NCBI GenBank assembly: GCA_947568835.1
Contig: OX387607.1
Span: 6,953,201 to 7,017,200, forward strand
Length of the DNA: 64,000 bases
DNA from: Protonemura montana
Taxonomy: Eukaryota > Arthropoda > Insecta > Plecoptera > Nemouridae
Direction: 5' to 3'
Shown here: positions 1,926 through 52,600 of the stretch, one piece after another
How the letters are laid out: each line of letters begins with the position of its first letter
Numbering within the stretch: the first letter of the stretch is position 1
Position numbers and translations under genes: made by a program
Notes under the pieces: generated by a model
Databases searched by the model: none
Told to the model about the DNA's origin: nothing
What the model saw: the letters and a program-made list of their open reading frames with translations, nothing else

Positions 1926-2254
1926 AAGGTTGAAATTTGCAGGTAAGTTTGAAATGGCAAAAATTTTAAAACACAATATTAAACGGGTCTTTGGTGAACC
2001 ATTTCCAAAGAAAACTAAAGAAAAGGACAAAATAAAATACGCTCATCTGAATTTCGCAAATAAAATAGCGTTATCAAAGTCCCAGGGTAAAGATATCGAA
2101 CCAATTGCCGTCCCTTATCTCAGGTACGGCCCAATCGGACACCAAGATTAACCAACAGTAGTGAAACATTATCGTACGACAACTTTTTCGACAACTTTTG
2201 TCGATTTTGTTGATTTTTGTCGAATGCGTAAAAATTGTCACTTCCTTCGAACGG

Positions 2255-2360
2255 TTCGGCGTGTTGGAAACGTCGGTTCTCGTAAAATCACCGAAGTTAA
2301 GCAACACTGAGCTAGGTCTAGTATTGGATGGATGACCATCATGCCCAAGACCAGTTGTTC
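2255..2360 (+). pseudogene. 5S rRNA-derived sequence (pseudogene or SINE3-type head)
   Basis: The stretch contains CGTCGGTTCTCGT, then ATCACCGAAGTTAAGCAAC, then GTATTGGATGGATGACC. These match in order and spacing the middle and internal control region of animal 5S rRNA: the GGTTCTCGT helix, box A AAGCAGC, and box C GGATGGGTGACC. The first 30 and last 20 or so bases are degraded and no T-run terminator follows directly, so it is unlikely to be a functional 5S gene. It is either a lone 5S pseudogene or the head of a 5S-derived SINE; only one copy is present here. Confidence 0.75.
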
Positions 2361-4199
2361 GGGAGAGAGGTTGGAGGGATGAACGATAGTACAAACCTTG
2401 ATTCGCTTTGTTTATCAACCTCTCAAAAGTAAGGGTTTGTGGAGGAATCCTGTATAGGCGCTTTGAAGGACAAACGCAACGCCAAAACACACCATAGAAA
2501 AACTTTTCTTAACTTTCCATCTAAGAATCAACACCTCGCAAGTGCTGCAGTATTGGAAAATCATACATTTTTATGTATTTTAACGTTTATTTCAGTGCTC
2601 GAAGATCTTAAGCATGAAGTTATTAAATAATCTTCATTTTTGCCAAAAGGCGTGCTGCCAAAAACTGACGCTAAAACCACAAATAAAAAAAATGTAATGC
2701 GGACAAACTCGTTGTATGACGTGATGTAGTTTTGACATGCGTCAATTCATAAAATGCATTAATTTAGATTATATGATGTGATATTATAGATGCTAACAAA
2801 TAAATTGTTTGATCGGTAGATTTTTCTTGCACATAATTCGCCATTATCGAATTCGCCATAAACATATCGCCCAAAATTAAAAACATTGTTACTTGCCTCT
2901 GGCCCCATGTAAATTGTCAATACAGAGCAACGCCAGGACCAAGCTAGGACTACTCTAGAACCGTTTCATAAACCCTGGCTCGCCGCCAACCTTGCACCAT
3001 CCCAGGCGTGCGGATTGCATAACTTTGGTTCTGTCAGTTTCAATAGCAGCTGATCGCCACAGGCTTGTTGACAGCGAGTGTTTGTGTTGAACCACATTAT
3101 TTTTATTTTTAAGGACACAGGCATAGCACAGGTATAGTCTTTGGACACAGGTATGTATCTCTGCTTCTGTCAACTATTTTGATTTATGTTCTCGATGAAA
3201 GCGTGCTAATGGTGCAAATCGCACTATGTTTGAAACGACTACCGTAGAGTGTGCATAATTCAAGTAAAGTTCAAATTTCAAATTGTTGTTTACTTACCCA
3301 ATTACTGTTGCACATGCATAATTTTCCAAAAATCTTCAAACAATGCATAACATTAAAATATGTGACAACATATGTATTTAATGATTTTTCTTGCGTCATA
3401 AAGACGAGTATTGTGTGGTAACTGGATCTTCACGATTTTGGGGGTGTCACTTCAAGTCAGTGCCTCGAAGCCTCGCCATGGCTTAGCATATCTCATTGCG
3501 TACACCCACTCAGTGAATTACATTCAATTGAGCTTACCGATGTTCCATGGTGCTTTGCAAGGAAAAAGGAAGTCTCAAAATACCTGTGGGTCATTTCACA
3601 TCAAACCGGCACACTTGTCACTAAATTCACCAAAGGATTTTTTTGAAGTTTTTATGCTAACTAGTGTGGTCTTTTAGAGGTCCGCGCGTGCACAGTTTTG
3701 CATTATTATACAAAACTCCTGATGTTTAAAAAGAACTATTCAAGCTATATAGACTTGTGGTTATCAGCGTTAGAAAAAACATTAAAAACTTAGTGGAAAA
3801 CAGTTTCAAAATTTTGTATAAACCCCAACAGCTTGTTGGATACACTTTCTACATCTATGTTTTTTGAAACGACTAAAATCTACGTCTTCAAAAACGTTCA
3901 AATTTTTTATTTTGCAAAATTGACAAAATTGACAAAATTTGCAAAATTTTGACAGCTGCAAAATTTAATTGTTGCCACTGTACAGGTTCACGAGAAAAAA
4001 AATCCACCGTTATGCATGCGTCAAAAAAGCAAGGTTTTTGCTCAGTCCCGAGAGTTTAGAAGTTCATAACTATAATAAGTGTTCTAAAACTAGATGGAAC
4101 TTTCAGAAAAAGTTGTTCTTGTAGGTATCTAGGCTGGTTCAAACTTGTATGTTTGGCACTTTTTAAGTTTTAGAGAAAAAAAATCCACTGTTCCCCAAT

Positions 4200-4800
4200 T
4201 GCGTCAAAATGAACAGTTTTTAGGGACACTTGACTCTTGAGTCAAGGTGGGTCGCAAGAGTGGGTCGCAGGTTCGAAGCCCGGTCGCCCAGCTTCCAACT
4301 TCTCGGGAAAAGATAAGTAAAATGTAAACAATTCCCGTGTGCTTAAATTGGCTGGCAGAAAATTTCGTTGTAGAGAGAATACTTTCATCTAATTCCAGAT
4401 AAGTTTTTTGATACAATAATCCAGCTAATTTCTTGTACAAATCATTTATAATGGGCTCTCCTTTGCTATTAAAATATCTGTTATTCCCTCGACTTATGTC
4501 GATGGCAGATTGAATCGGTCGCATCTCCATCAACTTGAACCGACCGTACTGAGTTCGTATCTCAGCCGGTCGTCGATTTATGAATTACGCAATTTTGTTG
4601 TCCATAAATCGGAGACTGAACTAAATTATTATCGAAAATTTTCATCACGTGTATAGTAACAAATCCTTCAACACGCACCGGTCCTAACGGTGCGAGTTGT
4701 CTGAGGTTCGATCCTCGGCTATTCCAACTTTTTCCAAAGCACTTAATCTGGAATATAATTCGTTGAAGTGTGGTTGAAGGTAAGGCGATAAAAGAGTCCA
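4200..4800. repeat. left-arm-only segment with two tRNA-like T-arms
   Basis: This segment interrupts the left arm and has no counterpart in the right arm, where the flanking sequences are nearly adjacent. It contains a perfect T-arm-like hairpin at 4549-4565 (CTGAG, loop TTCGTAT, CTCAG), a B-box-like GGTTCGATCC at 4705-4714 and GTTCGAAGCC at 4271-4280. It may be an insertion on the left or a deletion on the right. Confidence 0.5.
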
Positions 4801-4889
4801 AAGTAAATTTTTGAAAATGATTAACTAAATTCTATATTATTTCTTATTTATTACATTATTATTTATTTATTTACATACGATCTATACCT

Positions 4890-4982
4890 CTTCACTTGCA
4901 CGGTGGCTGCTTGGCTAATTGGTGGCAAGCTGGCTTGAGATTGAACAGTGGTCTCGAGTTCAAATCCTGGCAGATTTTTTTT
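4890..4982 (+). repeat. tRNA-like module with A box, B box and T run
   Basis: An A-box-like TGGCTAATTGG at 4912-4922 is followed by a B-box-like AGTTCAAATCC at 4957-4967, then a T run at about 4975-4982 as in RNA polymerase III units. The mirror copy lies in the right arm at about 9,436-9,545 on the minus strand. No full acceptor stem is formed, so it is not a functional tRNA gene. Confidence 0.55.
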
Positions 4983-5355
4983 GTAGACAGGATAGTAGTG
5001 ATGGGTTTTCCGATTTTTCGAGTAAAATTTGGCGGAGGTCTGTGTCAAAACAAGCCAGTGTGATGACGATCATCTGACGGCGGCGGCGATGGCGGTTGTT
5101 TTCAACTACACGTGATCAGGTTGGTAAAGGCCAAGACTCTAATGAGTCGACCAATTTCGGGACACCAGTTTTGAATCCCGGCGCCGCCACCGGACGGCAG
5201 TTGTTCTGCTAGATGGAAGCTCTGTGAGCTTTGAGTAAACGAAAATATAACATTCGGAAAATATCTTCGATGCTATACAGATTCGAATTCTGCGTTCGAA
5301 GTAAGTAATTCAATGTAATTGTTTCATTTGTTAAAACCTAAGAATATATCGACTG

Positions 5356-5418
5356 CTCTTGTAGTCAAGCGGCGAGGCCGTTCGGTCGATGTGGTAAAGG
5401 TTCCACGATCGAATCCCG
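5356..5418 (+). repeat. tRNA-like module in left arm
   Basis: TAGTCAAGCGGCGAGGC at 5362-5378 resembles the D-arm/A box of Leu/Ser tRNAs. GATCGAATCCC at 5407-5417 resembles a B box. The mirrored right-arm copy (9,050-9,106, minus) keeps a better A box (TAGTCAAGCGGTTAGGCC) and TTCGAATCC. Confidence 0.55.
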
Positions 5419-6117
5419 GCCAAGGAGTAACAGTGTGATATTTTTGTTAACATCAGGCGTATCAACATCCGGGTATGGATCGAGTACATTTTATATCCAA
5501 CAGGTTGCGCTGGGGGTCACGGTGCGTCTTAACACGACTGTGTGTTTGGTGAAACTTTACAAATAAGAGTAAATGGGCCCTGTCAACGAGCAACGGGTTT
5601 CGACGGGCGGTCTACCAGTCGGGCTCTAATGTGTGCATATTCGAGATCGGTGGTGGCAAATGGTGAAATCCCATTTATTGGAGTTGCCGAGCGCTTCTAC
5701 ACCGGTAGTTGTAGCGATCGGGTTGCTCTTGCTTGCGAGGACGACTAATAATCGTCCAGGATATTATACCATCTTTTAAAGATAGATTCCCGGAACGGGA
5801 ATACAGTTCGAAACCGAGCTAAACAGAGGGTGCGGACGATGTCACGTACGTACCCAGAAGGCCAAGTTTTCTAGACGTCACCTGTAGGCAGAATCTGGAA
5901 CTACCGCAGGTCCCTGAGGTAAAAAATCATCGAACGGAGAAAAATCTCACAAAAAACCAAAAATGTTATATGTCCAGACGGTAGTACCATATTCTGCGAA
6001 CAGGTGGCGCTGGTTGTCGCTAACACTAAGTACCGTTCCTCTATACTTGATGCTAGACGTAGGAGCTGCACACGGGGTTTGGGGTCGTGGGAACGGCCCG
6101 CAAAATTGGCGGATCCA

Positions 6118-8179
6118 AAACCCATTTGGACCAGACCGTTTGCTCGTGCGGTTAAAGGCATGGAAACAAATAGTCACTTCGTCGATAGAAAGTGGAAGCA
6201 CTAGGTTCGAATCACGTTCTTACCAAAACGCTGTGCGGATTTTTTTTTGTTTTTTTTTGGGCGAATTGTTAAGACAGTAGCAAAATTGCCGGGCGCTCCT
6301 GGCGCTTCGCGCCAGTCGCACCCGCCAATTTTGCGGGCCGTTCCCACGACCCCAAACCCCACCTATACCCCGTGTGCAGCTCCTACGTCTAGCATCAAGT
6401 ATATAGGAACGGTAGGTACTTAGTGATAACTTCAATCAGCGCCACCTGTTGGCAGAATCTGGTACTACCGTCTAGACGTTTAAAAATTTTGATCTTTGTT
6501 CAATAGTTTGATACGTCATAAACTGGCGGTAGTTCCTGATTCTGCCAACAGGTGGCGCTGATTGAAGTTAACACTAAGTACCTACCGTTCTTATATACTT
6601 GATGCTAGACGTAGGAGCTGCACACGGGGTATAGGTGGGGCTTGGGGTCGTGGGAACGGCCCGCAAAATTGGCGGGTGCGACTGGCGCGAAGCGCCAGGA
6701 GCGCACGGCAATTTTGCTACTGTCTTAATCATTCGTCCAAAAAAAAATCCAAACCAAAAAGAGGTCTGAACGGGCTTCGAACCTAGTACCTCCACGTTCT
6801 TTCGACGAGGTAATAAATTCATTCTATGACTTAAACCCCACGACCATGCGGGCTTTTCTATCCAGTTGTATTTTTGAGATATTTAAACCTCTTTTGACTG
6901 CCACTACCTCTGGTGGTTGTTGGATATCGTATTCCAACCCATTTGGACCAGCCCGTTTGCTCGTGCGGTGAAAGGCATGGAAAGAAATGGTCACTTCGTC
7001 GATAGAAAGTGGAAGCACTAGGTTCGAATCACGTTCTTACCAAAACGCTGCGCGGATTTTTTTTTTTTGTTTTTTTTTGGGCGAATTGGTAAGACAGTAG
7101 CAAAATTGCCGGGCGCTCCTGGCGCTTCGCGCCAGTCGCACCCGCCAATTTTGCGGGACGTTCCCACGACCCCAAACCCCACCTATACCCCGTGTGCAGC
7201 TCCTACGTCTAGCATCAAGTATATAGGAACGGTAGGTACTTAGTGATAACTTCAATCAGCGCCACCTGTTGGCAGAATCTGGTACTACCGTCTAGACGTT
7301 TAAAAATTTTGATCTTTGTTCAATAGTTTGATACGTCATAAACTGGCGGTAGTTCCTGATTCTGCCAACAGGTGGCGCTGATTGAAGTTAACACTAAGTA
7401 CCTACCGTTCTTATATACTTGATGCTAGACGTAGGAGCTGCACACGGGGTATAGGTGGGGTTTGGGGTCGTGGGAACGGCCCGCAAAATTGGCGGGTGCG
7501 ACTGGCGCGAAGCGCCAGGAGCGCACGGCAATTTTGCTACTGTCTTAATCATTCGTCCAAAAAAAAATCCAAAACAAAAAGAGGTCTGAACGGGCTTCGA
7601 ACCTAGTACCTCCACGTTCTTTCGACGAGGTAATAAATTCATTCTATGACTTAAACCCCACGACCATGCGGGCTTTTCTATCCAGTTGTATTTTTGAGAT
7701 ATTTAAACCTCTTTTGACTGCCACTACCTCTGGTGGTTGTTGGATATCGTATTCCAACCCATTTGGACCAGCCCGTTTGCTCGTGCGGTGAAAGGCATGG
7801 AAAGAAATGGTCACTTCGTCGATAGAAAGTGGAAGCACTAGGTTCGAATCACGTTCTTACCAAAACGCTGCGCGGATTTTTTTTTTTTTTTTTTTTTTGG
7901 GCGAATTGGTAAGACAGTAGCAAAATTGCCGGGCGCTCCTGGCGCTTCGCGCCAGTCGCACCCGCCAATTTTGCGGGACGTTCCCACGACCCCAGACCCC
8001 ACCTATACCCCGTGTGCAGCTCCTACGTCTAGCATCAAGTATATAGGAACGGTAGGTACTTAGTGATAACTTCAATCAGCGCCACCTGTTGGCAGAATCT
8101 GGTACTACCTTCTAGACGTTTAAAAATTTTGATCTTTGTTCAATAGTTTGATACGTCATAAACTGGCGGTAGTTCCTGA
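6118..8179. repeat. 820-bp tandem array with internal inverted modules
   Basis: Positions 6,421-7,240 and 7,241-8,060 are nearly identical full units with a period of exactly 820 bp. Partial units extend the array to about 6,118 and 8,179. Each unit holds a roughly 200-bp GC-rich module in both orientations (for example 6,545-6,740 and, inverted, 7,085-7,290), separated by a tRNA-like spacer and an AT-rich spacer. GCCAACAGGTGGCGCTGA marks each module edge. Short frames here that begin MKLTLSTYRSYI or MKLSLSTYRSYI are by-products of the repeat, not genes. Confidence 0.85.
6138..6249 (+). repeat. tRNA-like module, first array copy
   Basis: TGCTCGTGCGGTTAAAGGC at 6141-6159 (A-box-like) is followed by GGTTCGAATC at 6204-6213 and a T run at about 6240-6248. 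The same module recurs 820 bp and 1640 bp downstream (B boxes at 7021-7030 and 7841-7850, T runs at about 7058 and 7876). Inverted B boxes in the same array at 6774-6783 and 7594-7603 (minus) also have A runs, that is minus-strand T runs, about 30 nt beyond them. Confidence 0.5.
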
Positions 8180-9049
8180 ATTTTGCTACTGTCTAATAAT
8201 ACGCCTAAAAAAAATTAATTTCGTTCAACTGCGTCGAGGATTGGACGTGATTCGAACCTAGATGTTCCCCATTCAAATGGTCAGGCAAACGATGTATTCG
8301 ATGCCTTTATTCACAAGACCATGTAGACGTAAGTCTATATTGGTATTTTTGAGATATATAAGTCTCCAGATTCCGGCTAAAACGGGTGGAAAATCCATTC
8401 CAACAGTCAATAACTTCCTCCGTCGAGTTGATTCGATCTAGGTTGCGGATAATTTTCATTTAACCAAAGCAACGACAATACCATTGTGCCACGCAGACGA
8501 CTATGCATTGAGGAGAAAGATGAACCTTTTTAAATTTCATGTTTGAAACCCGGCCTACTAGGTATGTACATGACATCGACCGCAGCTTCTATTTAGTTCG
8601 GTTTAGTACCGCATTCCCGTTAGCAGTCCGGAAATTTACCTTCGCATTTTTTTAGAATATAAAGGATTATTACTATTCGTCCTCCTAAGCAAGTGCTAGA
8701 CCCGGCCGACATACCAAGCAGCGCAGAAGTACTAGACCTTCACACCTATCAGTGCAAAAGCACTCAACAACTCAAAAATGGGCTTAAACCATTTGCAACA
8801 AGCTAACGCGATTGCAAGCCTAGAGGCTGACTAGTGGAATGCCAGTCAAAGCCCGATGCACGGTGGTAGTGCCCCGATTTACTCTTATCTGTAAAGTTTT
8901 ACCAAACAGCCAGTCGTGTTAAGACGCACCGTGACCCCCAGCGCAATCTGTTGGATATCAAATGTACTCTATCAATCAATGCGAGAATTTGGTCGGTAAC
9001 CCGGATGTTGATACGCCTAATTTTAACAAAACTATGATAATACTGGCCA

Positions 9050-9108
9050 GGATTCGAACGTGGGCCCTATATCACGTCAACCAAGCGGCCTAACCGCTTG
9101 ACTACAAG
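9050..9108 (-). repeat. tRNA-like module in right arm (mirror copy)
   Basis: On the minus strand TAGTCAAGCGGTTAGGCC (9,088-9,105) precedes CGTTCGAATCC (around 9,050-9,060). It is the inverted partner of the module at 5,356-5,418 and is the most tRNA-like A box in the element. Confidence 0.55.
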
Positions 9109-9579
9109 AGTAGCTTATATATGCCTATGCAGAATCCGAATCAGTTAATCGAAGATGTTTTTCAAATTTTATATTTTTGTTTACTCAAAACTCCCAGATC
9201 TTTCATCTAGCAGAACAACTGCCGTCCAGTGGCGGCGCCGGGATTCGAAACTGGTGTCCCGAAATTTGGTCGACTCATTAAAGTTCTGGCCTTTACTAAC
9301 ATGACCACGTGTAGTTGAAAACAACCGCCGCCGCCGCCGTCAGATGCTCGTTATCACACTGGCTTGGTGGGGTGTTACCCCCACATATGTTTTACTCGAA
9401 ATATCAGAAAACCCTTCACTGCCATCCTGTCCACGAAAAAAAATCTGCCAGGTTATGAACTCGGGACCTAATGGTCGGGAACTCGGGACCTAACCTAAGA
9501 CTCGAAGCAAGCTTGCTACCAAAGATCCAAGCAGCCACCCTGCAGGTGGGGAGGTATAGTTTGGATATATATTCTGTAT

Positions 9580-9672
9580 CATCCATATATATATATATTA
9601 TTTATGTCTATTATTCTATATTTATATTTATATCTATATATATTATCTATATTCTATATTATCTATATTCTA
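9580..9672. repeat. AT-rich simple repeat
   Basis: Low-complexity TATATC/TATTCTATAT tracts. Its partner in the left arm (about 4,830-4,880) is also AT-rich but shorter. Confidence 0.8.
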
Positions 9673-10325
9673 ACAATTTCAAAAGTACTTAATAATTCCA
9701 GTAATATTCCAAGCACTAAAAAATGCCAATCAGAAAAGTTTGCACCAGCCAAGATAGTTTCAGCTAGTTATTAGAACATGTATTATAGTTATACACTTCT
9801 AAACTCTCGGTCCTAAGCAAAAACCTTTTACGCTTGGATGAACGGTGGATTATTTTATTTCTTGAACCTGTACATAGCCAACAATTACATTTTTCAGCAG
9901 TCAAAATACATCTATAAGTAACGTTTAATAAAAATTGAGATCGTTTTTGAAAACACATATTTTTTTATGGTCGTTTCAAAAAACGTAGATGTAGATAGTG
10001 TATCCAACAATTTGTTGGCGGCTTTTCAAAATTTTCAAACTGTTTTTGACTAAGTTTTTAATGTTTTTTCTAACGATAAAAACCGCAACTTGAATAGTTT
10101 TTTTAGATATCGGCTATAATACAAAACTGTGTACGCTTGGACCGCTAAAAGAGCCCAACTTTGGAAGGTCATATATCCCACAGTAGTTGGCCTAAAAATT
10201 TCAAAAAAATACTTCTGTGCATTTGGTGACTGGGGCAACAATTTCTGAAAATTTCAAAAGAATCCGAGATGTGAATGTAGAAAAAAAATCCAAGTGGGCC
10301 TGCCGGTTTGATGTGGAATGACTAT

Positions 10326-11359: not shown

Positions 11360-13183
11360 ATGTTTTGCAGGTCTCGCCTTCTATTTCGCCGGACCAATTT
11401 CACCCGAATTTGTCGCAAATCCTTTCAGATGCCATCGCCAAGAAATGCAAGCGTTCAAAAGCTCACGACGAGAACTGCGTCGGAAGCCCTCGCCAACCTG
11501 GGTATCAACACATCGGTGCTGAACTCCCCAAGGATGCACATGCTAATGCATGCAGCCAATACTCGCATAGATCATGCTTGTGGACTCAACATAGACACGA
11601 AGTCTTCATTTCTGCGGCTGTCGAACATCATCTGCACGATTGGTCCAGTGACCAGGGAGGTTGCGATGCTCGAGAAGATGATCACCGCCGGGATGGGAAT
11701 CGCGCGGCTCAATTTCTCGCACGGTTCGCAGGACTATCACCAAACCAGCGTTGTTAACATTCGCCAAGCGGTGTTAAATCTCAACAAAAATCCAGATGCT
11801 AACATTACGGTTGCGATCGCGATTGATACAAAGGGTCCAGAAATAAGAACAGGATACTTTGAAGGTGGTCCTGGAGCCGAGATCGAGTTGACGGCTGGGG
11901 ATACGATCAAGTTGTCGGTTGATAGATTGTATGCTGATAAAGGAAGTCTGCAATTTATCTATGTTGACTATCCGCAACTTATCAAGACTGTCAAGTTCGG
12001 TCAAAAGATTTACATCGACGACGGATTGATATGTCTGACGTGCTCTCACGTAGGCTCCAATTTTCTCACGTGCACAGTGGAAAACGGAGGTATTTTGGGT
12101 GGACACAAAGGCGTTAACTTACCAAACGTTGCAGTCAACTTGCCGGCCGTTTCAGAAAAAGACATTGAAGATTTAAGATTTGCTGCCGTCAATGGCGTCG
12201 ACATTATTTTTGCTTCTTTCATCAGGCAAGCGGAATCTATCCACGAAATACGAAGCCATCTTGGACACGACGGTAAGAAAATTTTGATTATCGCTAAAAT
12301 CGAAGACAGTCAAGGAATGCAAAACATCGACGAAATCATCAAAGAAGCTGACGGAATTATGGTAGCCCGAGGTGACCTAGGGATAGAAATACCCCCCGAA
12401 AAAGTATGCGTCGCCCAGAAAACCATAATCTCGCGATGTAATAAGGCAGGCAAACCCGTGATAGTTGCCACCCAAATGTTGGAGTCGATGATATTGAAGC
12501 CCCGTCCGACTCGAGCAGAGGGCTCAGACGTAGCCAACGCTGTCTTGGATGGCGCCGACTGTCTAATGCTATCCAGCGAGACAGCCAAAGGATCTTACCC
12601 TCTCGAGTGCATACACACTATGGCGAAATTCTGTCGCGAAGCCGAAGCCGTCATTTGGCATCAACAGCAATTCAATGAACTATCTGCGAGTGTAGACATT
12701 CCGATAGCAGCAGAGCACGCCGTAGCAATCGCAACTGTAGAAGCAAGCTACAAGGTTATGGCTGCTGCTATAATCTTGATCACCAAGTCGGGAGCATCAG
12801 CGTTCCAAATCAGCAAGTATAGACCACGCTGTCCGATAATCGCTATCACAAGAGAGCAGAGGACAGCTCGACAATGTAAACTCTACCGTGGTATAATACC
12901 TCTGCACTTTAAAGCGGATATCCTCTCAGACTGGTTGAAAGACGTCGACATGAGAGTCCAGTATGGGCTAAAGTACGCGACTAGGAACGGTTTCGCCCAG
13001 GCAGGAGACCCTGTGGTCATTGTAACTGGCTGGAAGCAGGGTTCTGGATTCACGAACACTATGAGAGTGATCTACATGTCGCCTGACAGATCAAATGCTC
13101 CTGAAGTCCATGTTACCGCCCCACCCACGGGAGACGCTATGTTTCCTCTGATGACACCACGGTCACCGGAGAATAACGCTTAG
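11360..13183 (+). CDS. pyruvate kinase (diverged paralog)
   Basis: Converts phosphoenolpyruvate and ADP to pyruvate and ATP, the last step of glycolysis, in the cytosol. The 607-residue frame keeps ARLNFSHG (115-122), DTKGPEIRTG (156-165), KIED with the catalytic Lys (313-316), ARGDLGIEIP (336-345), ATQMLESM (370-377) and KPRPTRAE. The usual GETAKG is SETAKG (406-411). Typical insect enzymes are about 530 residues; the extra length is an N-terminal lead and a roughly 30-residue tail after NTMRVIYM. The coding block has no intron. The start is uncertain: CCTTTCAG directly precedes an in-frame ATG at 11,429, so translation could begin there, after an upstream untranslated exon. The missing introns and changed loop residues suggest a paralog, possibly a retrocopy, rather than the housekeeping gene. 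It faces the JHBP gene tail-to-tail across 285 bp. Confidence 0.92.
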   Translation: MFCRSRLLFRRTNFTRICRKSFQMPSPRNASVQKLTTRTASEALANLGINTSVLNSPRMHMLMHAANTRIDHACGLNIDTKSSFLRLSNIICTIGPVTREVAMLEKMITAGMGIARLNFSHGSQDYHQTSVVNIRQAVLNLNKNPDANITVAIAIDTKGPEIRTGYFEGGPGAEIELTAGDTIKLSVDRLYADKGSLQFIYVDYPQLIKTVKFGQKIYIDDGLICLTCSHVGSNFLTCTVENGGILGGHKGVNLPNVAVNLPAVSEKDIEDLRFAAVNGVDIIFASFIRQAESIHEIRSHLGHDGKKILIIAKIEDSQGMQNIDEIIKEADGIMVARGDLGIEIPPEKVCVAQKTIISRCNKAGKPVIVATQMLESMILKPRPTRAEGSDVANAVLDGADCLMLSSETAKGSYPLECIHTMAKFCREAEAVIWHQQQFNELSASVDIPIAAEHAVAIATVEASYKVMAAAIILITKSGASAFQISKYRPRCPIIAITREQRTARQCKLYRGIIPLHFKADILSDWLKDVDMRVQYGLKYATRNGFAQAGDPVVIVTGWKQGSGFTNTMRVIYMSPDRSNAPEVHVTAPPTGDAMFPLMTPRSPENNA

Positions 13184-27207: not shown

Positions 27208-30200
27208 ATGAGCGATCCTGAACCCCGCATAAAACTTATTGAAAAAGGGTTGGGTGCACTCTTCGAAGCTCCTGAGCTGGCTATTGAGGAGTTTGTTATA
27301 GCAAAGCAGAATGAACACCTTCCCAGGTTAGAATCAATTGATTTTTTACTCTCCTTTTTATCAACATTAACAAAATATGGGACAATTAAAAGGATCAGGG
27401 GTCTTATTCAGCTGCCCTGCTGACCTAGAAACAATAAAGTTCTAAGTTCTAATGCTGCACTAGATTTAATATGCTATTTGCTATTCTACTGCCAGAGAAA
27501 GGTGCAATACAACAATTCCAAGTAACTTTTCATTTCACTGCATACTATTGAGCCTTCAATGATAGAAGTTAAAATCTTAATATAGAGTGCTGTCTTTTAT
27601 GCGTTAGTGTGCTTGTATTTACAGACGGAAGCCAGAATGGGATCTGGCTAGCTCGACTCCTGCTGCCGAGTTGGCGGTGGCACGGCGGGAAATGGCTGCT
27701 GCTGAACGTGCGCTGGCTGACAAGCGCAAAGAGCAGATAGAGCGTAGGAAGCAGATGGACGGCCAGTGGGATGACCTCCGCAACAAGGAGTTGGCGCTCA
27801 AGGAGTCGTTCGTGCAGTACCAGAAGTTTGTCAAAGTGAGGGACACTTCGAGATGGCAATTAATGCATCAGGAAACTCTATCAACAATATAATGTGAAAA
27901 CTATTTCCTCGTTAAGAACACTTCTCAGAAAGATGTTTGCTTCTCCAGTGAGGGCATTCAAGAAGGGGCTAGAAATAAGTTTATCGTGAAGCCCGTTTTT
28001 TTAATGGAAATTTACGCATGTTTTAATTTTAAATTTCAGTTTCGTAATAGGTCCATGCGGGCCCACAAGTAAAAATTTTAGTTTTATTTTCATTCATTCC
28101 ATAAAAAAAACAATCCATACGAAACAAATCGTTATATCACAATCAAATGCAAAAACCAATGTGGTATAAAGAAGGTATACAAAATTTAATATTATCTAGA
28201 TTTCTAATATTTTCTTAAATTCTGTCAAGGTTTTTAGATAAATTTCTAAATCTAAATTTTTGAATAAAAGGTTGTTGTAAGTAGCCTGAAGTCTATTTAT
28301 GGCAGAGAATTTCCAAATGTCAATATGGAAGGGAGAGATTTGAAAAAAGATTTGAAAATAGCTACTTATAATTAATAGTTCTTAAATTAAAATGCGAAAC
28401 CAATGCAAACGAAAATACAAATGAAAATACACAATTGCAAAATATAAAATGGAAATGGAAAAAAGGTATTTGCAGCACATCACCCTCATTTTGCATTCTC
28501 ATTGGTATCCAATTGAACCGATAGCACTAGAAATTTTGCTACTGTTGACACTCAAACTTACAGGAGAACCAAGAGAAACGCGAGCGAGCGCAGATCAAGG
28601 TCCGTGCCGAGCGCGACATCCAAGCGCAGAGCAACTACGAAATCGGGTTGCTCAAGGACAAGGTGTCCGAGCTGTCGCAGACACGAAGCGACATCGAGAA
28701 CCACGTCGACGAGTACAATATTTACGAGGACTACCTCAACCACGTCGTGGCGCTCACGCCAGAGTTTGATGGGATCACGGTACAGAGGCTCAATTTCTTG
28801 CCAGACAAAGCTGATGGCACACATTTCATTTTTATACTTTTTTATGTGTCCATTTAATCAAATATGATTTTGATTTAATGGATGCTTGTGCTGCTGATGG
28901 CAAACATCAGCTGCAAGGTCTGAAAACCTAGGACTGATATTTAATATAATAGTTTTGAAATAAAATTAAATATGTCACCAGTTAGATTTTTCAAATAAAA
29001 ACGCTATCGTCAAATTGAAGTTAGTGAATAGATATGATGCAGAATAGCATCACTGGAGTCAGATTGACTGTGAGTATTTACAGCCTCATGGTTCTACTCC
29101 TTGGGCATCCGTCATTCTCGATAAATGCACTAAAATCCTGCGAAATCTGATTTAAATTGCAAACACTTGCAATGTGGAGGGTATTTTATTATTAGGGACT
29201 CTAATAACCTCTCAAAAACTGATGTCTAAACTGGGAATCGAATCTTGATCTCCACCTGTCGCAGGTGTTGCTCTAACCAATTGAGTTACTTAGACACATA
29301 ATTTTTGAGAGGATTTTAGTGTATTTGATGAGAATGACAGATCTCCAAGGAATAGAACCAAGACGCTGTGAATACTCACAGTCACTCAGATTCTAGTGAC
29401 GCTATACCATGTCACAACCTGTCAATCTCCAGTAACTCCATAATGTTGGATGCGTTTTTTCAATTCATGCACCAATATTTGAGAGGTCATTAGTGTTCCT
29501 AATAATAAAGCACTACAATTCTCTCAAAAAGGTTGTATCCAGGTAGCTCAGTTGGTTAGAACAACACTCGCTATAAAGGTAACGACCGGAGTACAAGTTC
29601 CCGATTGAGTGTTCATAATTATAAAATCAGTTGATCGACCATTCTCCCTTTGCAAATGCACCGTTTACCGCAGGACGTGCTGAATCGTTACGAGACTCTA
29701 GCGTCAGCTCGTACCAGCCTGGCCGAGCAACAAGACAGGGATCTCACGGAGTTGGAGCAAGCTCGTAATGAGATGGTGCAACTTTCCAAGGTGGGATATC
29801 CATGGATACTGTTTTTGTTTTTTGTTTTTTTTCCCTTTTAACGTGGAAACACTTCTGAGTTGGAAAGATTGGAGATTTTATGGTTTATGAATGTTCATGT
29901 ATCAGATGTAAGGCCATTGAGCATAAAAAAAAATACCACTCTCATTCTCAAAGGGGTATTCAGTTTTGGTTTGCAGCAGAAATAATTTCACATATTACAG
30001 AACTAAAGCCCAAAGGTCCAGTTATCACCAAGGACCCTGGTTCTTCCTGCAGGACAAATCACAGACAATAATGCGCATGAACAGCAAGCTAGCCAACCTG
30101 CAAGCACGTCACGATCATGCTAGCGCGGAGTCTGCTCGCTGGGAGTCTGCCGTGGCACACGTAAAAGAAGTCGCAGCGCTCAAGAAGCTGGAACTCGAGC

Positions 30201-39489: not shown

Positions 39490-39880
39490 CCCGATTGTGA
39501 GTGTCCTAGCAATATTTTAATATTAGGAACACTAATACCCTCTCAAAAATTGATGCCAACGTTAAATTGGAGTTACTGGAGATTGACAGGTTGTGACGTT
39601 GTATAGCGTCACTAGAATCAGAGAGACTTTGAGTATTCACAGCCTCTTGGTTCTACTACTTGGAGATCCGTCATTCTCATCAAATACACTTAAGTCCTCT
39701 TAAACGTTATATGTGTAAGTAGCTCAATTGGTTAGAGCAACACCAGCGAAGGTGGAGATCGGGGCTTGATTACCCTTGTAGGCATCAATATTTGAAAGGG
39801 TATTACCGTATTAGTGTTCCTAATAATAAAAATACCCCTCGCATTGCAAGCGTTTGCAATTTAAGTCAGATTTCACATAC
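39490..39880. repeat. tRNA-like dispersed repeat (same family as 29.0-29.6 kb)
   Basis: 39,560-39,690 is the reverse complement of 29,300-29,440. A tRNA-like segment at about 39,716-39,778 reads GTAGCTCAATTGGTTAGAGC, then CACCAGCGAAGGTG, then GGGCTTGATTACCC. It ends in GCATTGCAAGCGTTTGCAAT at 39,841, a terminal word also found at 61.64 kb and, inverted, at 29.15 kb. Confidence 0.65.
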
Positions 39881-43600: not shown

Positions 43601-46600
43601 AAAAAAAGCGTTAATTCAACATGATTTCAAAACTTTTAGTGTAATACACAAAGTCACTAAAACACTGCAAAACACTTTTAGTGAACGTTATTGGTAAAAT
43701 TAAAAGGCAAGTAAATTAAATGCTTCGCCACGTGAATGGATAGCAATTTTTTCTAGAACGGGCAATTAAACACATGGTAAGACTTCATTTTGACATGTTA
43801 CATTATTACCTTATGTTACAAAGTGACAATTATTTATGAATATTGTAAACAAATAAATCAATAAGAAAGTCAATGTACTGAGTTATGCAAAAACTGCCTA
43901 AAGTGTCCATACCATCGGAATGTTGAACGTCGTGAATGCAGTCTCTAGCACCATCTGATCCATGTTCATGGTCTGCGTCATGATCTCGCGGTTCGTGCAC
44001 ACATTCGAGCTGCTCATCTCTTGGTGGGATGATGAATAGCGCGTTGCCAGCATTCGGAAGATAGCACCGGTCTCCGAGTCCACGTCCTTCAGCGGGTTGC
44101 TGAAAAGTTGATGGTGGCGTCAGGTTACTGTGGCGGATAGCTAATAATTAAATGCCAATGATGGATAACAGGATATAGTGGTGATGTCTTCCAAACCTAG
44201 TATAAAACAAAGTATAAAAACTGCAAACAATAAAGGTTATACAATACAATACTCCAAGGTTTTGGTTGCAACCCAGGTTGGAATATCTGCTTAACCTATA
44301 CCTATGTATGTGTATATCTACATAAGTCCCTAAATACGTAACCCACAATCTGCGTAGATCCAACTTACCTGAGGCCGATCCCGCCACCCGCGATGTTGAG
44401 CACGATGTCAAATGGGTCCTTCTTGAAGGTGGCCCGAAGTGCAGCAGCCGTCTTGCTCTGCGAGTTGGGGTCGAGCAAGGCCTCACCCGTCTCCGGTTCC
44501 ATCACTAGCGGGCGGAACGGCTCTGTTGAGAACGAGGAGTCCACCTGCAAACCAGTTGTGTTTAGGTTAAGTGGTCGTCAATGAATCGACTCCATCAACA
44601 TGTGGTCTGTGAGCTGGCGGTCATGGATGAGCCATTTATTTAAACGGCAGAATTATGCTAACATGAAATGAAAACACTCGCAGCCATGCAGGAAAATGTA
44701 GCTGTTTCAGGCAATTGGATCTCAATTCTCAATACACTTATACAAAAAAAAAAAATGGTACTTAACTAGTGCTAAGGTTAGATTAAGTAGACATGAGTCT
44801 AAAAACCAGTATGGTGGAACCAGCTTAACCACCTCACAAACCACAAGTTGCCTTAGCACTCATCACATCAATTGATGCTTGTAAATTAGTGCAAGATTCC
44901 TCCATAAAGTCTCAAACAGATATATAACAATGACTAATGAGTGGAGATCTCTGATGAAACTTAAAAAATTAATTCTATCTAAATGGCTTTGGATTTGCAC
45001 TATGGTGTTAGCTTAGCTCCAGAACTTAAACTTAATTTACCGAAGGGAAGATGTGTATGACTGCATTGGCGAGGATCTTAAAGACGAGCGGATCTGCACG
45101 AGCGTGGCCCACGACAAGATGGCGAGCCAATCGGATGGTGAGCTCGCGGCCGAGCGGTTGGGAGGCAAATAAACCACCAAACAGCGCAATGTGGAACTTG
45201 GTTTCCTCAGGCGAGCCCACCTATTGGTACAGAATTGCATTATCACATAGCTCTTTACACACAGCGCCTATGGCAGCTCTGGGGTGTAGTTCTGTAACCT
45301 TTTGACAGTGGAATGAGATAAAATAAGATGAGAGTTTTAATTTGTTCCATTGTTAGCATAGGAAAAAATTGGCCATCTAATCTTATTTAATCTCATTTCA
45401 TTAGCAGGATTGCACCCCTGCTGGTTTTCTTATGAATGACTTGTTTCGGAGAAGAACTTACCGAAGATGCAGAAAAGGCGTCGCATGGCGTACTTTTTGA
45501 GATTTTAAGTTTCAGCGAAATCGCCATCATCACCGAGAGAGATTGTGACAAATGTAACTTCGTAAAATCTAGATGAGTGCACCACTCAACGCCTTTCAAC
45601 ATCTCCAGATGCGCTCCCTCTCTCTCCCTCTTCACCACATTTGTCCAGTCTCTAGGCAAGCTATTTGCATGATTATTTTACTAACATATTTGGAAGTCAG
45701 AGCAGGAAATTTTCACTATTTACAAGTGCAGCAATATCTGTACAGTTTACATTCAGAGTGTCAACGTTTCTTGAAAACAAATAATATTTTCCATTTTAAA
45801 TTATGGGTCATTCCATGTGTAATCACTCACCTCAAACTTTGACCGACCCAGATTTTGATGAAAATTGGTATACTTGTTAAGTTTGTTGACTTAGGGGCTA
45901 TTTTTTAATTTTTTTTTTTTTGGTCCAACCGTTCGGATATTACAAGGGGGGGAAGTTGGGGTCATTTTGCCCCCCGCGCGTGTAGTGACCACCCTTTCTA
46001 CGCAATATCTAGGGTTCTATGGGAGCTACAGAGCTGGGAAAAAAATCATCTGAAAGGTAATTTCATACCCTACCTGAATATGGAAACAAAAATGACGATA
46101 TGTTAATACGAATTTAATTGTGATTTTACACATCTGCATTTTCCAAAATGACCATATCGCTGATGAGTCATTTTTGATTTGCCTGATTTTTTTTCTATAT
46201 GTACAGAACATACATATGATCATGTGTTCCAAAAATCAAGATGGGTGTTCTACTACTTTCCAAGAAAAAAAAATGTTTTCTGCAAATTCATTCATAATAT
46301 AAATTAATATGAACTGAATTTAAGACAACATTCAAGAAAATGATCATTACTTACAATCATAGCTACTATGAAGTACAAATTTGCATATCTTAAGAGAGAT
46401 GTAGTTTACCTTATTGAGGTACATATTTTATAAGCCCTGCTGTTGCCCTGTTGGTGTCTGTAGCCGACAAAAAGTATGTTCGACCAGTTGCCGTGTTGGG
46501 GTCGGCCAGTGTTAAAACATCAGCAAAAGCTACAATTAGTTTGTCTTGTACACTGGGATAAAAATATGATGGAGCTGGTCCATGAGGGTGTAGAAAGTTG

Positions 46601-49600
46601 ACTTGAAGTTCAAGAGACTGTGATGATTTTTCAAGAACACACGCTAGCCACCAGTCTTCGTTGTATGCTACAGTGATGAAACTGCCCACGTCTTTGAACT
46701 CAAACTCGGGTATTTCTGCTGCTGTTGCTTCCTCCTCTTCTTCTTCTTCTTCTTCTTCTCCTTCTTCATTTTTCTCAACAATCTTCACAATGTTGATTTC
46801 TTCAGAAAGAGAAAAGTGTTTCACATGTAAGGAAGTTAGCGATTTTGGGTAGAACGCATGAAAGCTTCTTGTGCCTACGATAGTTTTTAATTCTTTGAAT
46901 CGTTCTTTAAGTTTGATGCCATTTGCTGTAATCTCTTCATTGGCTACAAACACAAAATTTACAGTCCACACATTTTCTGTTGCCCACCGGTAAAAGTCTA
47001 TCGGCGTCATTATTTGGTCGGCATATGGTTTCTGTAAACTTGCCCGTGCTGCATTTCGTTTTACAGTCCCACCAACTCCATCGCATGGTCCTTTACCGTG
47101 GGATGTGGCAAAAAAATGCCACTCAGCAGTTAGTTCGAAGTCAACTTCATGATGGCACAAGTTGGAAAAATTCTTCTTATTCTTATATTGGGCTGCCGCT
47201 CCATCAGAAAAGTAAATTAAATGGGATACATCCGAAATGTTTTGTTTCAGGTGTCTTATCAGGTGCTTTTGGAAAGTGTGCACAGTAACGGTGTCATGAG
47301 TTAGCGAGTCAGAAATGACAACGTAACTTAAATGTTGTATGTCTCGATCTTCAGGCTTAAAGTAACACACAAATGGGTGAAGGGTGCATTGGCTGTTATT
47401 CCAATGGTAACCTTGTGCAGCATCCTGGAGCACAAAAGAATAATTCTCAGCGAAGTCGCCCACTACTAAAACTTCCCCTGGTTTAAGGTTGGCTTTCTTC
47501 TCCTGCATGAATGCCGCTTGCTGCCGTGCAATAAAATCATGATTTCTTAATAAAATGCATTTTTCAATAAAACAGTCAACAAACTCATCTGTAGGTTTCG
47601 TAATTGTCTCTAGGGTACATCTGTCTGTTGACAGCCACTGTTTATAAGTCACAGAGTCTATGAAATTTTCACTGAATGAGATTTCTAGCCATTCACGAAG
47701 TTCATCGGTTCCCGGACAATTGCCACACTTTCCTACAAAGCAGTTGAGAAGCGGGGGGTTGCACATGAGGCTGGCAAGGCAGTGTTGGTATGATTTGATG
47801 GTACCGTCTGAAAGCAAAGGCAGCTTTGCTCCCAAAGCCATCAACTTAACGTTTTGGTGTATCGTACAGACACAGACAGAATGTGTCCCAGCTGCTCCTG
47901 CCAGAACACAATGTTTGGGTCTGAGCTCTGCAAACTTCGAGAATCCAACCTTGATGTCAGGATATTTATCTTTGAAGCTGCGATACACTTCACTTAAGTT
48001 GCTTAACACTAGTCTCTTCTGGCGGTGAACTCGATTGTCACCCACTTTAACCGAGACAAAATCTTTTTTACCCGGCATGACACGGCTTACATCATCATTT
48101 TCATAAAACTCTTCAATCAGTTGAATGCAATCAGGGGAAAGAGTTTTTCCTGCTTTTTGATTTGCAGATGGCAGTATCCCTTGGGCCTTTACTAGTTGTT
48201 TGGTTTTACGTACCAAATGGTTAGATGCATTGAACTCTTGCATTATTCTCTTAATGCTCCAACTTTTTGGAAGCACAGATAAAATTGTTATTTTCTCGCT
48301 TCTGGTACTCGTCTTAAACTTTTCTTTCAGTTGTGCTATTATCTCTGACCCATCACGGATGCTGTCCTTGCACTCCTCTGAAGATGTCAAATCTTCTTTG
48401 CTGATTTCTTCATTACTGGGAGATACTAGTTCCAATCTCTTCTTTACACCTTGTGTTATTTCGCTGAACTTTCTTTTCGAATAAAACATAGATTTACCCT
48501 TTAGTTTGGTGGTATTAATAGGTGACACACCAAATGCAGCTAAAGACTGATTCACGGCATCTGCTTCACAGGGTATGTCCACGAAAGGTAGGTCAAGTTC
48601 AGTGGATTTAGTTGGCGTTAGAACAGAAACGGTTGTTAGTTCCTTCAGCCTGAGCGAGAGCAGCTTACGGCAAGTTGAGCATAATTTCTTTCCAGGGATG
48701 AGGTCGGCAATCTCCAAGTATTTCGTCCTGGATGCTGCATTAATTTCTCTTAACCCATTAACTTTCACTATTCCACAGTGAGCCTGAAACGGATCGCAGC
48801 ATAACTTGTGGTGACAGCTATACAGACGAAGGAATTTCTTTTCATGTAAATGACACACGGTCTTCACATTATCACACTTAGTACGCAGAGCTAATGATAA
48901 CTGCTGGTCACTATTGAAACTTTCAATGCTTTTAATCGCTAGATCTTCGATGGGTCCACATTCTTCTTCAAAGAACAGTCCAATTGAGCACATTATGAAT
49001 CTCTAAATAAAAGGTGCTTGAGAGCAAATTAGCTTCTATCCTCATCAACATGAGGCCAGAGACTGATTGCTTTAGTCCAGACAAGAAATTACCAAACTTT
49101 TTACTTGTAACCTGTTACAACTTGATCCATGATTCAGGAGCATGACAAACAATCTATAGTTGTATTCTAGGGAATACCATTTTAAGATTCTTGTAGATGC
49201 AAGTCCAGACAAGAAATGAACAAACTTTTGACTTCTATGAACTGTTTCAACTTGATCCATGATTTACAGGAATATGGCAAACAATCGATTTGTATTGTAG
49301 AGAATAACATTTCAAGAACATGCAACTGTGCAAACAAAAATCAACTTTAATATAAAATATATGCCAGTGCTCTGATCACAATAATTGTGATCAAAATGCT
49401 GTTCTACTGGCAAAAAGGCACTTTTTTATAGAAAAAATTTTTTTTCTTGGAAAGTGGTAAAACACCCATCTTGATTTTTGGAACACATGATCATATGTAT
49501 GTTCTGTATATATAGAAAAAAAATCAGGCAAATCAAAAATGACTCATCAGCGATATGGTCATTTTGGAAAATGCAGATGTGTAAAATCACAATTAAATTC

Positions 49601-52600
49601 GTATTAACATATCGTCATTTTTGTTTCCATATTCAGGTAGGGTATGAAATTACCTTTCAGATGATTTTTTTCCCAGCTCTGTAGCTCCCATAGAACCCTA
49701 GATATTGCGTAGAAAGGGTGGTCACTACACGCCCGGGGGGCAAAATGACCCCAACTTCCCCCCCTTGTAATATCCGAACGGTTGGACCAAAAAAAAAAAA
49801 AAAAAAAAATAGCCCCTAAGTCAACAAACTTAACAAGTATACCAATTTTCATCAAAATCTGGGTCGGTCAAAGTGAAATTTAATTAAAAGTGAGTGATTA
49901 CACATGGAATGACCCTTATACAATACACTTGTGACTAACTCGTGACTTAAGACTAAAAAAGACCATTGAATACTACAGCAATGATAGGTTTTGAGCTTCT
50001 CGCACATTTCCAGTAGCAATCGGCTCAATTTGCACCTAAGAAATTGGTCACAATCAATGCAAAAAAAAAGGATCGGTGTGCTAAAGACTAAATGTAGCAA
50101 CCAAACCGTACCTCGTGCGTGATTTTCAGCGACTGCAAAGCCATGTTGACGTCGTTGGTGCCGCTCTCGAACTCAGCTACCGAACTGTCCTTGTTTTCTA
50201 GGCTGGCCATCACTTCCTTCATCTCAGCGTTGCTCAGGTATTTGTCTGACGCCAAGTTCTCGTTGATGTCAAAGTCGTGGAGCAGTGACCACCGCTTGGG
50301 GTTGTCGATTAGCAGGGTGAAGTTGACGAAAATGGCACCAAATTCTGGCACGACTGCTTCTTGTGTCTGGCTCGAGTACCTAAGGGATACAAATAATGAT
50401 GTTGGTGGAATTCATTTGGAATTTTGTCCAAAGAGGTGTACATTATTTCAAAAATCTATATTAGAAGTTCTGCAAAATTTTGGAGAGTGCATTTTATTTT
50501 TAAGTTGATACAATAATAAATTTCCTTTTAGAAAATCAAACATAAGAGAAACCTACAGAAAATCTGGAGAAGAAAACTGGGAAAATCTAGAAATCTTGGT
50601 GAATGAATCCAAGGAATTACATTCGAGGAATCCATTCCTCTTTCAGTAAAATTTCAATTTAAGATACATAACTTAGAGGAAACTTAATTTATATATTCCA
50701 GGAACGTGACGGCAAAGAAATTGACAGTTACGATTTTAAAGTAAGATCTCGTTTGAGAAAGGTTTGTTTTATAGTCCTAAAACTAAAAATATCACCAACT
50801 ATGGGCCCTGAAGATCAAAATAAACCAAATAAACCAGGCTATAGGAATAACTTAAGCAGTAAGACCAGGCTTAAGCATTTTGCTGGCTCATTGTTGAAAT
50901 AGTAGTCAAGATGCCTCAACACCAACACAAATGCCGAACATATGTGATGTCAAACATACATTTAGAATCTCCAACCCAAATAAAAAATAAATAAAAAAAA
51001 CGCTATCCATAAGTTTCAGTGACATAGGCAAGAGTAGAAACGTAAAACAATTTAGGTCACCACATAATGGCATTCTTCATTTCCTCTCGCGCTCTCTCTC
51101 CTTCACACACCAATTTACAAGGCCTTGCAATTTTTTAGAATGTTCTCTCCGAATCTTTCTGAAATCGTGGCTCACCCATGTGCGCTGACAGTGACTGTGT
51201 AACGCCCAGGCAACAAAATGCGCCAGAAGTCTCCATGTGGGGTGGAATGCACAACATGGTCGATGCCAGCCACGGAGATAGTCGCGTTGCCAATTGGGTT
51301 GCCCTCGGCGCTCACCACAAAGCCGGCCACGCCCTTGTGTACCTGCGCAGAGAGACGCAACATGTTTTGAAAGCAAAATAGGAAGAACATAAAGTGTCTT
51401 GTATTTTTCTTTTGTAGATGTGCTTTTGTGGAGAGAGGTTCCTTTTTTATCCAAAAAAAGAGATGGTTTCTAGATATTGCAGCAAAATTTTCTCTACCAT
51501 TTGCAGGTTAACACACTCTGCCAGAATATGTGGTGAATCCTTGGCCAGAAAATGTAAATACCTTAAAATTAAGACTAAAAACTGATAATGTTGGTAATGT
51601 TATCTCAATGTAATGCTAGTAAATAGAAATCCTACAGAGGCGCAAAACATATAATATTTGTACCGTACGTCAAAGTACTGAAAACAAATAAGAAATTATT
51701 GATAATAATAATTAGTTTTTCTGGGTTTAATCAGCAAAAACAAAACCAACAAAAAAACAACAACGGGTGCTGTGTCAAATTACCTGCTGCATGTAGGCGA
51801 TGAGCGATTCGCGGTTGTCGAGCCAGAACTTAGGCAGCTGCGAGGCTGGCGGGAACTTGAAGCATCCCATTTCGACAGTGATCTCGTAGCAGTTTGAGTG
51901 CAAGTAGTTCCAATCTTGCATGCCGCCGGGTACGACGTACCAGCCGGCGCCGTTTGTGATGCCGTCCGCGAAACGTTCCAGCGGCATTCCCTTGCACACC
52001 GGAGCAAGGTGCATCGTCGGGTGTTTCTGTATCGAGGACATTTTGTATCGGTGCATTGGTTGGGATTTTGAAGATATTTTGTGGTATGTTATTACTTGGC
52101 AAATGTAGATAATATGTACCATATCAATTGCAAACTTTGCAAAGTAAAAAAAGGAATTAAGCACTTGGAATTAAACCAGTTTACCAGTTTCAGTGTTCTC
52201 AATGCAAAGCTTTCTTATGTGGCCATTACTTAAATTAAAATACTTAATATGAAAGGGGGGCAACAATATTTCTGTTCATTCATGGAGTATTTTATCAATA
52301 CAGCTGATCCTACTACTACTCACATCAGAATAGGATCGAGCTAGCATTTTGAAGATCTCGTTGTCTGGGCTTGGGTTCTCGTGGCCGCTGACTTGCTCAG
52401 GGTTGTCGTCGAAAGGGTAGTTGGCAACAAGCGAGCCACCGTGCAAGTTGGCAGAGAGTACGAACGGATATGACTGAATCCATGTCATCATCGCACGAGT
52501 CTCATTCTCCGCGACGAGGTTCTCCTGAAACGAGATAGAAGAATGTTAGCTCCAATGCCGTAGCTAAAACATTTCTATTAGGCTTATTTGATGCATGAGG

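What the first reader, a model, noticed from the sequence alone, without database searches (positions are those of the whole stretch)
3588..10325. A 6.7-kb foldback element with multi-kilobase arms
Two arms of about 1.8-2.3 kb are reverse complements over most of their length, with no coding capacity and a tandem array between them. Foldback elements this long and this diverged between arms are unusual. The arms differ by many substitutions and a 600-bp gap, so this is an old structure or one that diverged in parts, not a recent inversion or an assembly palindrome.
Basis: seen in the sequence. Interest (0 to 1): 0.78.

Follow-up and report, generated by a model that had tools for sequence, protein, structure and literature searches.

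The report
Old foldback transposon with hairpin core
The 6.7-kb inverted-repeat structure is one old copy of a dispersed, non-coding "foldback" jumping element whose centre is an array of long hairpins, and the same stretch of genome also carries a recently spread protein-coding transposon with similar ends that may show what kind of enzyme moves it.

Summary
The foldback is real. Its arms (3588-5870, 8546-10324) are inverted repeats (blocks 70.7-73.5% identical, E to 1.7e-166) around about 2.5 tandem 817-820-bp units, each complete unit holding a ~500-bp palindrome. It is not a one-off: outer arm, inner arm and core each have at least 40 matches in this 258-Mb genome; L020 and L028 share the plan, L026 most of it. 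A tree places this copy's two arms apart, so its foldback predates its insertion. Where core arrays occur, cores are more alike between copies (91-98%) than arms (72-83%).

Unexpectedly, window 45805-49915 is a coding TIR transposon with the same first 11 bases (GGGTCATTCCA), an intact 860-aa ORF without a family match above cut-off, 53 of 53 scored genome matches 100% identical, and 4-bp TSDs in 9 of 9 further copies. Foldback copies hint at 4-bp TSDs (p 0.02 without the coding element); this copy's own is gone. Best reading: an old non-autonomous foldback family of that element's superfamily, not Mutator-type. The superfamily link is likely, the mobilising enzyme inferred.

The parts
3588..4240 (+). 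left outer arm (terminal inverted repeat, starts GGGTCATTTCACATCAAACC); two short deletions (after about 3616 and 3669) relative to other copies
4241..4868 (+). left-arm segment with no partner in the right arm; pieces present in related copies, so probably lost on the right
4869..5870 (+). left inner arm
   Evidence: pairs with 9572-8546, 70.7% over the block, best part 85%
5876..6112 (+). diverged core copy at the left edge of the array
   Evidence: 73-76% inverted match to 7142-7377 and 7962-8189
6119..8186 (.). core: about 2.5 tandem units of 817-820 bp
   Evidence: 6119-7365 vs 6936-8186 98.6%; unit pairs 98.9, 99.1 and 97.4% identical
6240..6760 (.). first ~500-bp palindrome of the core
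   Evidence: inverted self-match 6250-6747 91%; RNA fold -453 kcal/mol, z -50
7058..7580 (.). second ~500-bp palindrome of the core
   Evidence: inverted self-match 90%
8187..9572 (-). right inner arm (partner of 4869-5870, plus 8187-8545)
9573..9752 (-). AT-rich stretch where the right arm lacks the 4245-4868 segment; imperfect tandem repeats 9565-9672
9753..10324 (-). right outer arm (terminal inverted repeat), the better preserved end
   Evidence: 301 bits, E 1.7e-91 with the profile of foldback ends (this end is one of the 15 rows of the profile)
45805..49915 (-). coding TIR transposon with the same first 11 bases as the foldback family; candidate relative of the mobiliser
   Evidence: TIRs 45805-46281 / 49430-49915, 95.7-98.2% identical; ends GGGTCATTCCA; TTAT on both sides
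46411..48993 (-). intact 860-aa ORF, putative transposase
   Evidence: no Pfam match at E 0.01, none above cut-off, PDB best E 0.76; 53 of 53 scored genome matches 100% identical, 581 candidates

Best explanation
A degraded copy of an old, non-autonomous foldback DNA transposon. It moved as a ready-made foldback: its ends (GGGTCATTCCACATCAAACC) would be bound by a transposase supplied by a coding element of the same superfamily, which cuts the element out and inserts it with a 4-bp duplication of an AT-rich site. The coding element at 45805-49915 shows what such an element looks like; whether its own transposase or an extinct relative moved the foldbacks is not shown. After insertion the arms drifted apart, while the palindromic centre was amplified in tandem and kept similar across loci by recombination (unequal exchange or conversion). 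Shown: arms, array, dispersal, two arm lineages older than this insertion, core arrays more alike than arms, shared 11-bp ends, 4-bp TSDs of the coding element. Suggested, not shown: 4-bp TSDs of the foldbacks. Inferred: transposase action on foldback ends, and the way the core is homogenised.
For: Arms and array. Dispersal (capped lists): outer arm 44 matches (73 candidates, 40 scored), inner arm 53 (573, 40), core 75 (834, 40). Same plan in L020 and L028, most of it in L026, of 20 loci fetched. Arm tree of 22 copies: window left arm joins an L020 arm (97/98), right arm joins L036 (88/89); the two window arms 81.4% alike, median of 231 pairs 79.6%. Arms against core, compared with the window: L033 73-83% and 96-97%, L034 72-80% and 91-98%; by place also C2:6.30 Mb 75 and 94%, C2:7.42 Mb 78 and 95%, C2:6.69 Mb 75 and 92-93%, C4:20.44 Mb 75 and 92% (best direct matches). 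Coding element. Link: positions 1-11 identical; a profile of 15 foldback ends has, after the foldback itself, the two TIRs of the coding element as next-best hits in the whole window, in the right orientation (E 0.075 and 0.14); 4-bp agreement of flanks, 25 of 40 bases, permutation p 0.004 for 10 pairs with the coding element, 21 of 36, p 0.020 for the 9 foldback pairs alone.
Against: The window foldback has no TSD (0 of 4 bases). A first TSD test with fixed boundaries found only a 13-mer offset in L010; the 4-bp test came after seeing the coding element, with eroded termini aligned by eye. For foldbacks alone p is 0.020 at length 4 with nine lengths tried (length 6 gives 0.044), so it does not survive correction. 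The TIR profile link is weak hit by hit (reversed-window control best E 0.16; pairwise, 12 of 500 shuffles at least as good). The window right end has two mismatches in positions 1-11. The coding family is far younger than the foldbacks, so its present transposase is probably not the one that moved them. Two of two inner-arm copies examined have no such outer end in the ~2 kb outward, and L017 has only one outer end. In the element at C5:8.72 Mb the two arms do join in the tree, weakly (87/78). Cores outside long arrays are only 80-91% alike, and in L028 core (77-94%) and arms (68-84%) overlap.
Confidence: 0.68

Rival explanations
1. Mutator-type foldback (FB/NOF, Phantom, Tetris-like) moved by a MULE transposase with 8-10-bp TSDs.
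For: Most known foldbacks are assigned there (PMC4079207, read in part); MULE domains exist in the genome, 54 matches.
Against: The 3 MULE loci examined (of 54) have no inverted ends and no GGGTCATTCCA terminus; flank agreement at lengths 8, 9 and 10 is no better than chance for the 9 foldback pairs (p 0.97, 0.56, 0.34) and none is exact, though old copies may have lost theirs.
Confidence: 0.12
2. Local inverted duplication: half an element inserted, then was copied as a palindrome at this site.
For: L028 is a palindrome that includes 343 bp beyond the element ends, and L017 is 99.8% palindromic but lacks one outer end, so such events seem to happen at other copies; in one of three two-armed elements the arms are sisters.
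Against: In the window the arms are not sisters: the left joins an arm of L020, the right joins L036; no inverted match extends outward of the ends.
Confidence: 0.08
3. The core is a long-hairpin RNA locus (hpRNA) making small interfering RNAs, and is kept similar for that reason.
For: Near-perfect ~500-nt hairpin in tandem, z -50; core arrays more alike than arms.
Against: No expression data; the Rfam hits are miRNA families far below their gathering scores and reflect hairpin shape only; concerted evolution of an array explains the same pattern.
Confidence: 0.08

Closest known systems
Tetris of Drosophila virilis (PMC4079207; abstract, section 10 and first part of section 16 read)
   Same: Non-coding foldback, long arms (up to 1,735 bp), outer domain shared with a small inverted-repeat element, internal tandem repeats that relate to satellite DNA
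   Different: Tetris has 8-10-bp TSDs and is placed in Mutator by its authors, who found no transposase; here the tandem units lie in the centre and are long hairpins, the TSD evidence leans to 4 bp, and a coding relative is at hand
Galileo (P superfamily per PMC4079207) and FB of Drosophila (Mutator assignment recalled)
   Same: Very long inverted repeats with internal tandem repeats
   Different: Other superfamilies; neither transposase could be linked here
Sola2 transposons (PMC3627910, passages only)
   Same: 4-bp AT-rich TSDs as in the coding element; transposase of similar size (888 aa reported)
   Different: Reported examples have 12-21-bp TIRs, the coding element here about 490 bp; homology of the 860-aa ORF to Sola2 not tested
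Kolobok (PMC9587614, passages only)
   Same: 4-bp TSD, 5'-RR and YY-3' ends
   Different: Kolobok is TTAA-specific; none of the 10 coding copies checked here (window plus 9) has TTAA

Membership tests
Foldback elements (structural class) | Long inverted repeats make up most of the element | tested here: met
Foldback elements (structural class) | Internal tandem repeats in varying number | tested here: met
   core array about 2.5 units here, other numbers at other loci; 4085-4225 segment repeated four times in L015
Foldback elements (structural class) | No coding capacity in the foldback form | tested here: met
   4 of 6 frames; part of the inner arm
Mutator-type foldbacks (FB/NOF, Tetris) | 8-10-bp target site duplications | tested here: not met
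   9 foldback pairs, lengths 8, 9, 10: p 0.97, 0.56, 0.34, none exact; erosion of old copies limits the test
Mutator-type foldbacks (FB/NOF, Tetris) | MULE transposase with matching ends | tested here: inconclusive
   3 of 54 MULE loci examined, none with the ends
Superfamily of the coding element at 45805-49915 (after the Repbase rule for non-autonomous elements: same TSD length and positions 1-11 alike, one mismatch allowed; PMC4455052 passage) | Positions 1-11 alike | tested here: met
   foldback consensus GGGTCATTCCA identical; window left end 1 mismatch, window right end 2 mismatches
Superfamily of the coding element at 45805-49915 | Same TSD length (4 bp) | tested here: inconclusive
   coding element: window copy and 9 of 9 further copies; foldbacks: 2 of 9 exact, 3 of 9 with 3 of 4 bases, window copy 0 of 4, p 0.020
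Kolobok (for the coding element) | TTAA target | tested here: not met
   0 of 10 copies
Sola2 (for the coding element) | 4-bp AT-rich TSD | tested here: met
   definition from passages of PMC3627910
Sola2 (for the coding element) | Sola2 transposase homology | not tested
   no Sola profile was at hand; Pfam and NCBIfam gave nothing above cut-off
P superfamily (Galileo) | P-type transposase with matching ends | not tested
   searches for PF21787 did not complete

The most novel reading that the evidence does not exclude
Foldback elements arose outside the Mutator and P superfamilies, in a group with 4-bp AT-rich TSDs and a transposase that no Pfam, NCBIfam or PDB search recognised here; a coding family of that group is spreading now in the same genome (53 identical copies scored, several hundred candidates) and may be able to remobilise old foldbacks, while the foldbacks' hairpin cores spread or convert between loci on their own.
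Probability: 0.33. Interest if true: 0.62.

Novelty: new variant of a known kind. Interest (0 to 1): 0.45.

Why it matters
Foldbacks may be found without the enzyme that moves them, as reported for Tetris. Here an old foldback family and a very young coding transposon with similar ends lie in one genome, so cross-mobilisation can be tested directly. The tandem hairpin core, in array-bearing copies more alike between loci than the arms that carry it, is a natural case for asking how palindromic satellites spread and survive.

Tried and rejected
tRNA-derived arms: a B-box-like motif GGTTCGANNCC (recalled; up to 1 mismatch) occurs at 14.3 per 10 kb in inner arms, 17.3 in core, 0 in outer arms and 2.2 elsewhere in the held sequence. 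Copies are homologous, so counts are not independent; of 60 scrambled motifs the highest reach 10.0 in arms and 23.7 in core, so only the arm value stands out. Rfam's tRNA model finds nothing in the element, the best tRNA-like hit is tRNA-Sec at E 1.6, ARAGORN finds none in the window, and the arm consensus has 3 boxes on one strand against 1.05 expected at 2 mismatches. Kept as a passing remark.

MicroRNA hits in the core: hairpin shape, all below gathering scores.

Mobiliser by known families: MULE loci L053-L055 unhelpful; PF21787, PF05699 and PF05485 searches did not complete and were dropped. Relatives of the 860-aa ORF: none in viral contigs or genome contigs, both by close-relative patterns; own-genome hits listed were all identical copies, so no alignment could be built. 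AlphaFold2 on the single sequence failed (mean pLDDT 34), so no fold search was made.

Literature (listings only, except where a paper is cited as read): one search listed 6 papers holding 4 of 5 terms on foldbacks and tRNA-like boxes, none about both by title; one search showed 12 of 1,341 papers, none of those 12 holding Sola2; one search showed 20 of 38 papers with GGGTCATTCCA, unrelated by title.

Full report
Setting. Besides the finding it holds a pyruvate kinase ORF at 11360-13183 and part of an M14 carboxypeptidase.

Observation. The arms pair in three collinear blocks with E-values down to 1.7e-166, best stretches 78-85%. The centre is a tandem array of about 2.5 units of 817-820 bp, units 97.4-99.1% alike. 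The complete units contain a palindrome of about 500 bp; the first folds almost completely on itself (-453 kcal/mol against a shuffle mean of -155). The ~600 bp without partner in the right arm (4245-4868) look like a loss: pieces occur in L010, L015, L020, L026 and L028 (5 of 25 long loci compared, L017 counted twice), in L028 in both arms.

A family, not a single event. The outer left end has 44 listed matches (73 candidates, 40 scored), 16 of them on contig 16, which is 11.5% of the genome. The inner arm has 53 (573 candidates, 40 scored) and the core 75 (834 candidates, 40 scored); all are lower bounds. Of 20 loci fetched around outer-end hits, L020 and L028 show both outer ends with both inner arms and core sequence between them; L026 has both outer ends, core and inner-arm pieces on one side. 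Short forms exist: an element of about 270 bp with both ends (L029) and elements of about 1.7-2.0 kb. Not all copies fit: two of two inner-arm copies examined have no such outer end in the ~2 kb outward, and L017 has one outer end only.

History of the arms. In a tree of 22 inner-arm copies (18 of the matches, both window arms, both L020 arms) the window left arm groups with one arm of L020 (97/98) and the right arm with L036 (88/89); the two window arms are as far apart (81.4%) as copies in general (median 79.6% of 231 pairs). The two L020 arms do not join either; in the third element with both arms (C5:8.72 Mb) they do, weakly (87/78). So here the two arms were separate lineages before this copy landed. 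The tree is star-like (nine of 19 inner branches under 80 support), as after a burst.

The centre behaves differently. Against the window, arms of L033 and L034 are 72-83% alike but their core arrays 91-98%, and four further elements paired by place give 75-78% against 92-95% (best direct matches). Cores outside long arrays are less alike (80-91%), and in L028 core and arm values overlap. Array ends fall at different points of the unit in L033 and L034. This fits local tandem amplification plus exchange between loci better than a separate transposon with fixed ends, but this is inference.

A coding element in the same window. Window 45805-49915 (4,111 bp) has TIRs of about 490 bp (469 of 490 alignment columns identical), ends in GGGTCATTCCATGTGTAATC, is flanked by TTAT on both sides and holds an intact 860-aa ORF. 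No Pfam match at E 0.01; at E 10 two Pfam models at about half their cut-offs; NCBIfam's best is E 0.12, 13 of 65.85 bits; PDB's best is E 0.76. All 53 scored genome matches are 100% identical over 860 aa without stops, out of 581 candidates, the listed ones on contigs 1 and 2; 40 of 41 TIR matches are 100% over 480 bp and one is partial, out of 491 candidates. Nine of nine further copies have perfect 4-bp duplications (TTAT, ATTA, TTTA, TTTT, ATAT, AACA, AAAT, CTTT, TAAA). This is a very recent burst. That the ORF is the transposase, and of DDE type, is inference from its position and from motifs such as GDFAENY and SDGAAAQYK; the fold prediction failed.

Link to the foldback. The foldback consensus end and the coding element agree in positions 1-11. 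Repbase puts non-autonomous elements in one superfamily if TSD length agrees and positions 1-11 agree with at most one mismatch (PMC4455052, passage); I apply this by analogy. A profile of 15 foldback ends (14 from other loci, one the window's right end) hits, after the foldback itself, the two TIRs of the coding element first, at matching positions and strand, E 0.075 and 0.14, and again at ranks one and three when the first 24 alignment columns are removed; the reversed window gives a best E of 0.16, so each hit alone is weak. TSD: a first test with fixed boundaries was negative but for one offset 13-mer. Re-examined after the coding element showed 4 bp, 10 pairs (9 foldback-family, 1 coding) agree at 25 of 40 bases, p 0.004; the 9 foldback pairs alone at 21 of 36, p 0.020, with nine lengths tried and length 6 at 0.044. 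Exact in L010 and L029; the window copy has none. I therefore hold the superfamily link likely, the foldback TSD suggestive, and the mobilising enzyme open.

Known kinds. By structure it is a foldback like FB and Tetris. It is not filed under the Mutator foldbacks: 8-10-bp duplications are not supported and three MULE loci of 54 lack the ends. Kolobok is excluded for the coding element by its targets. Sola2 shares the AT-rich 4-bp TSD (PMC3627910, passages) but its protein could not be compared. PMC4079207 reports that the transposase of Tetris was not found, which is why the coding element here is useful.

Verdict. A real, old, dispersed foldback transposon: a new variant of a known kind. Its value lies in the hairpin array at its centre and in the nearby, recently active coding family.

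Noticed in passing
window 45805-49915: Coding TIR transposon, 860-aa ORF of unknown family, 53 of 53 scored matches identical and 581 candidates in the genome: a very recent burst.
   Followed up: partly
L017 joined with L032 (C2, about 9,648,064-9,657,773): A 9.7-kb palindrome whose outer arms are 99.8% identical over 2.68 kb, with a ~1.1-kb insert in one arm; it carries the same core but has a foldback outer end on one side only.
   Followed up: partly
L028 1627-8360: Palindrome (95%) that runs 343 bp beyond both foldback ends and is followed by an end of a related family, GGGTCATTCCATGTCAAATC, with 40 scored matches at 84-100%.
   Followed up: partly
window 4241-5950 and 8190-9700: Pol III B-box-like motifs are enriched in the inner arms and their copies, although no tRNA model matches.
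   Followed up: partly
G000 contig 16: 16 of 44 outer-end matches lie on contig 16, which is 11.5% of the genome; perhaps a sex chromosome (capped list).
   Followed up: no
window 2247-2363: 5S-rRNA-like stretch just below the Rfam gathering score (35.9 of 38 bits).
   Followed up: no
window 52845-52908: tRNA-like stretch above the Rfam gathering score (41.4 bits) that ARAGORN does not call.
   Followed up: no
window 29142-29440 and 39568-39874: Inverted repeat, 84% identical, about 10 kb apart, with a further piece near 61,600.
   Followed up: no
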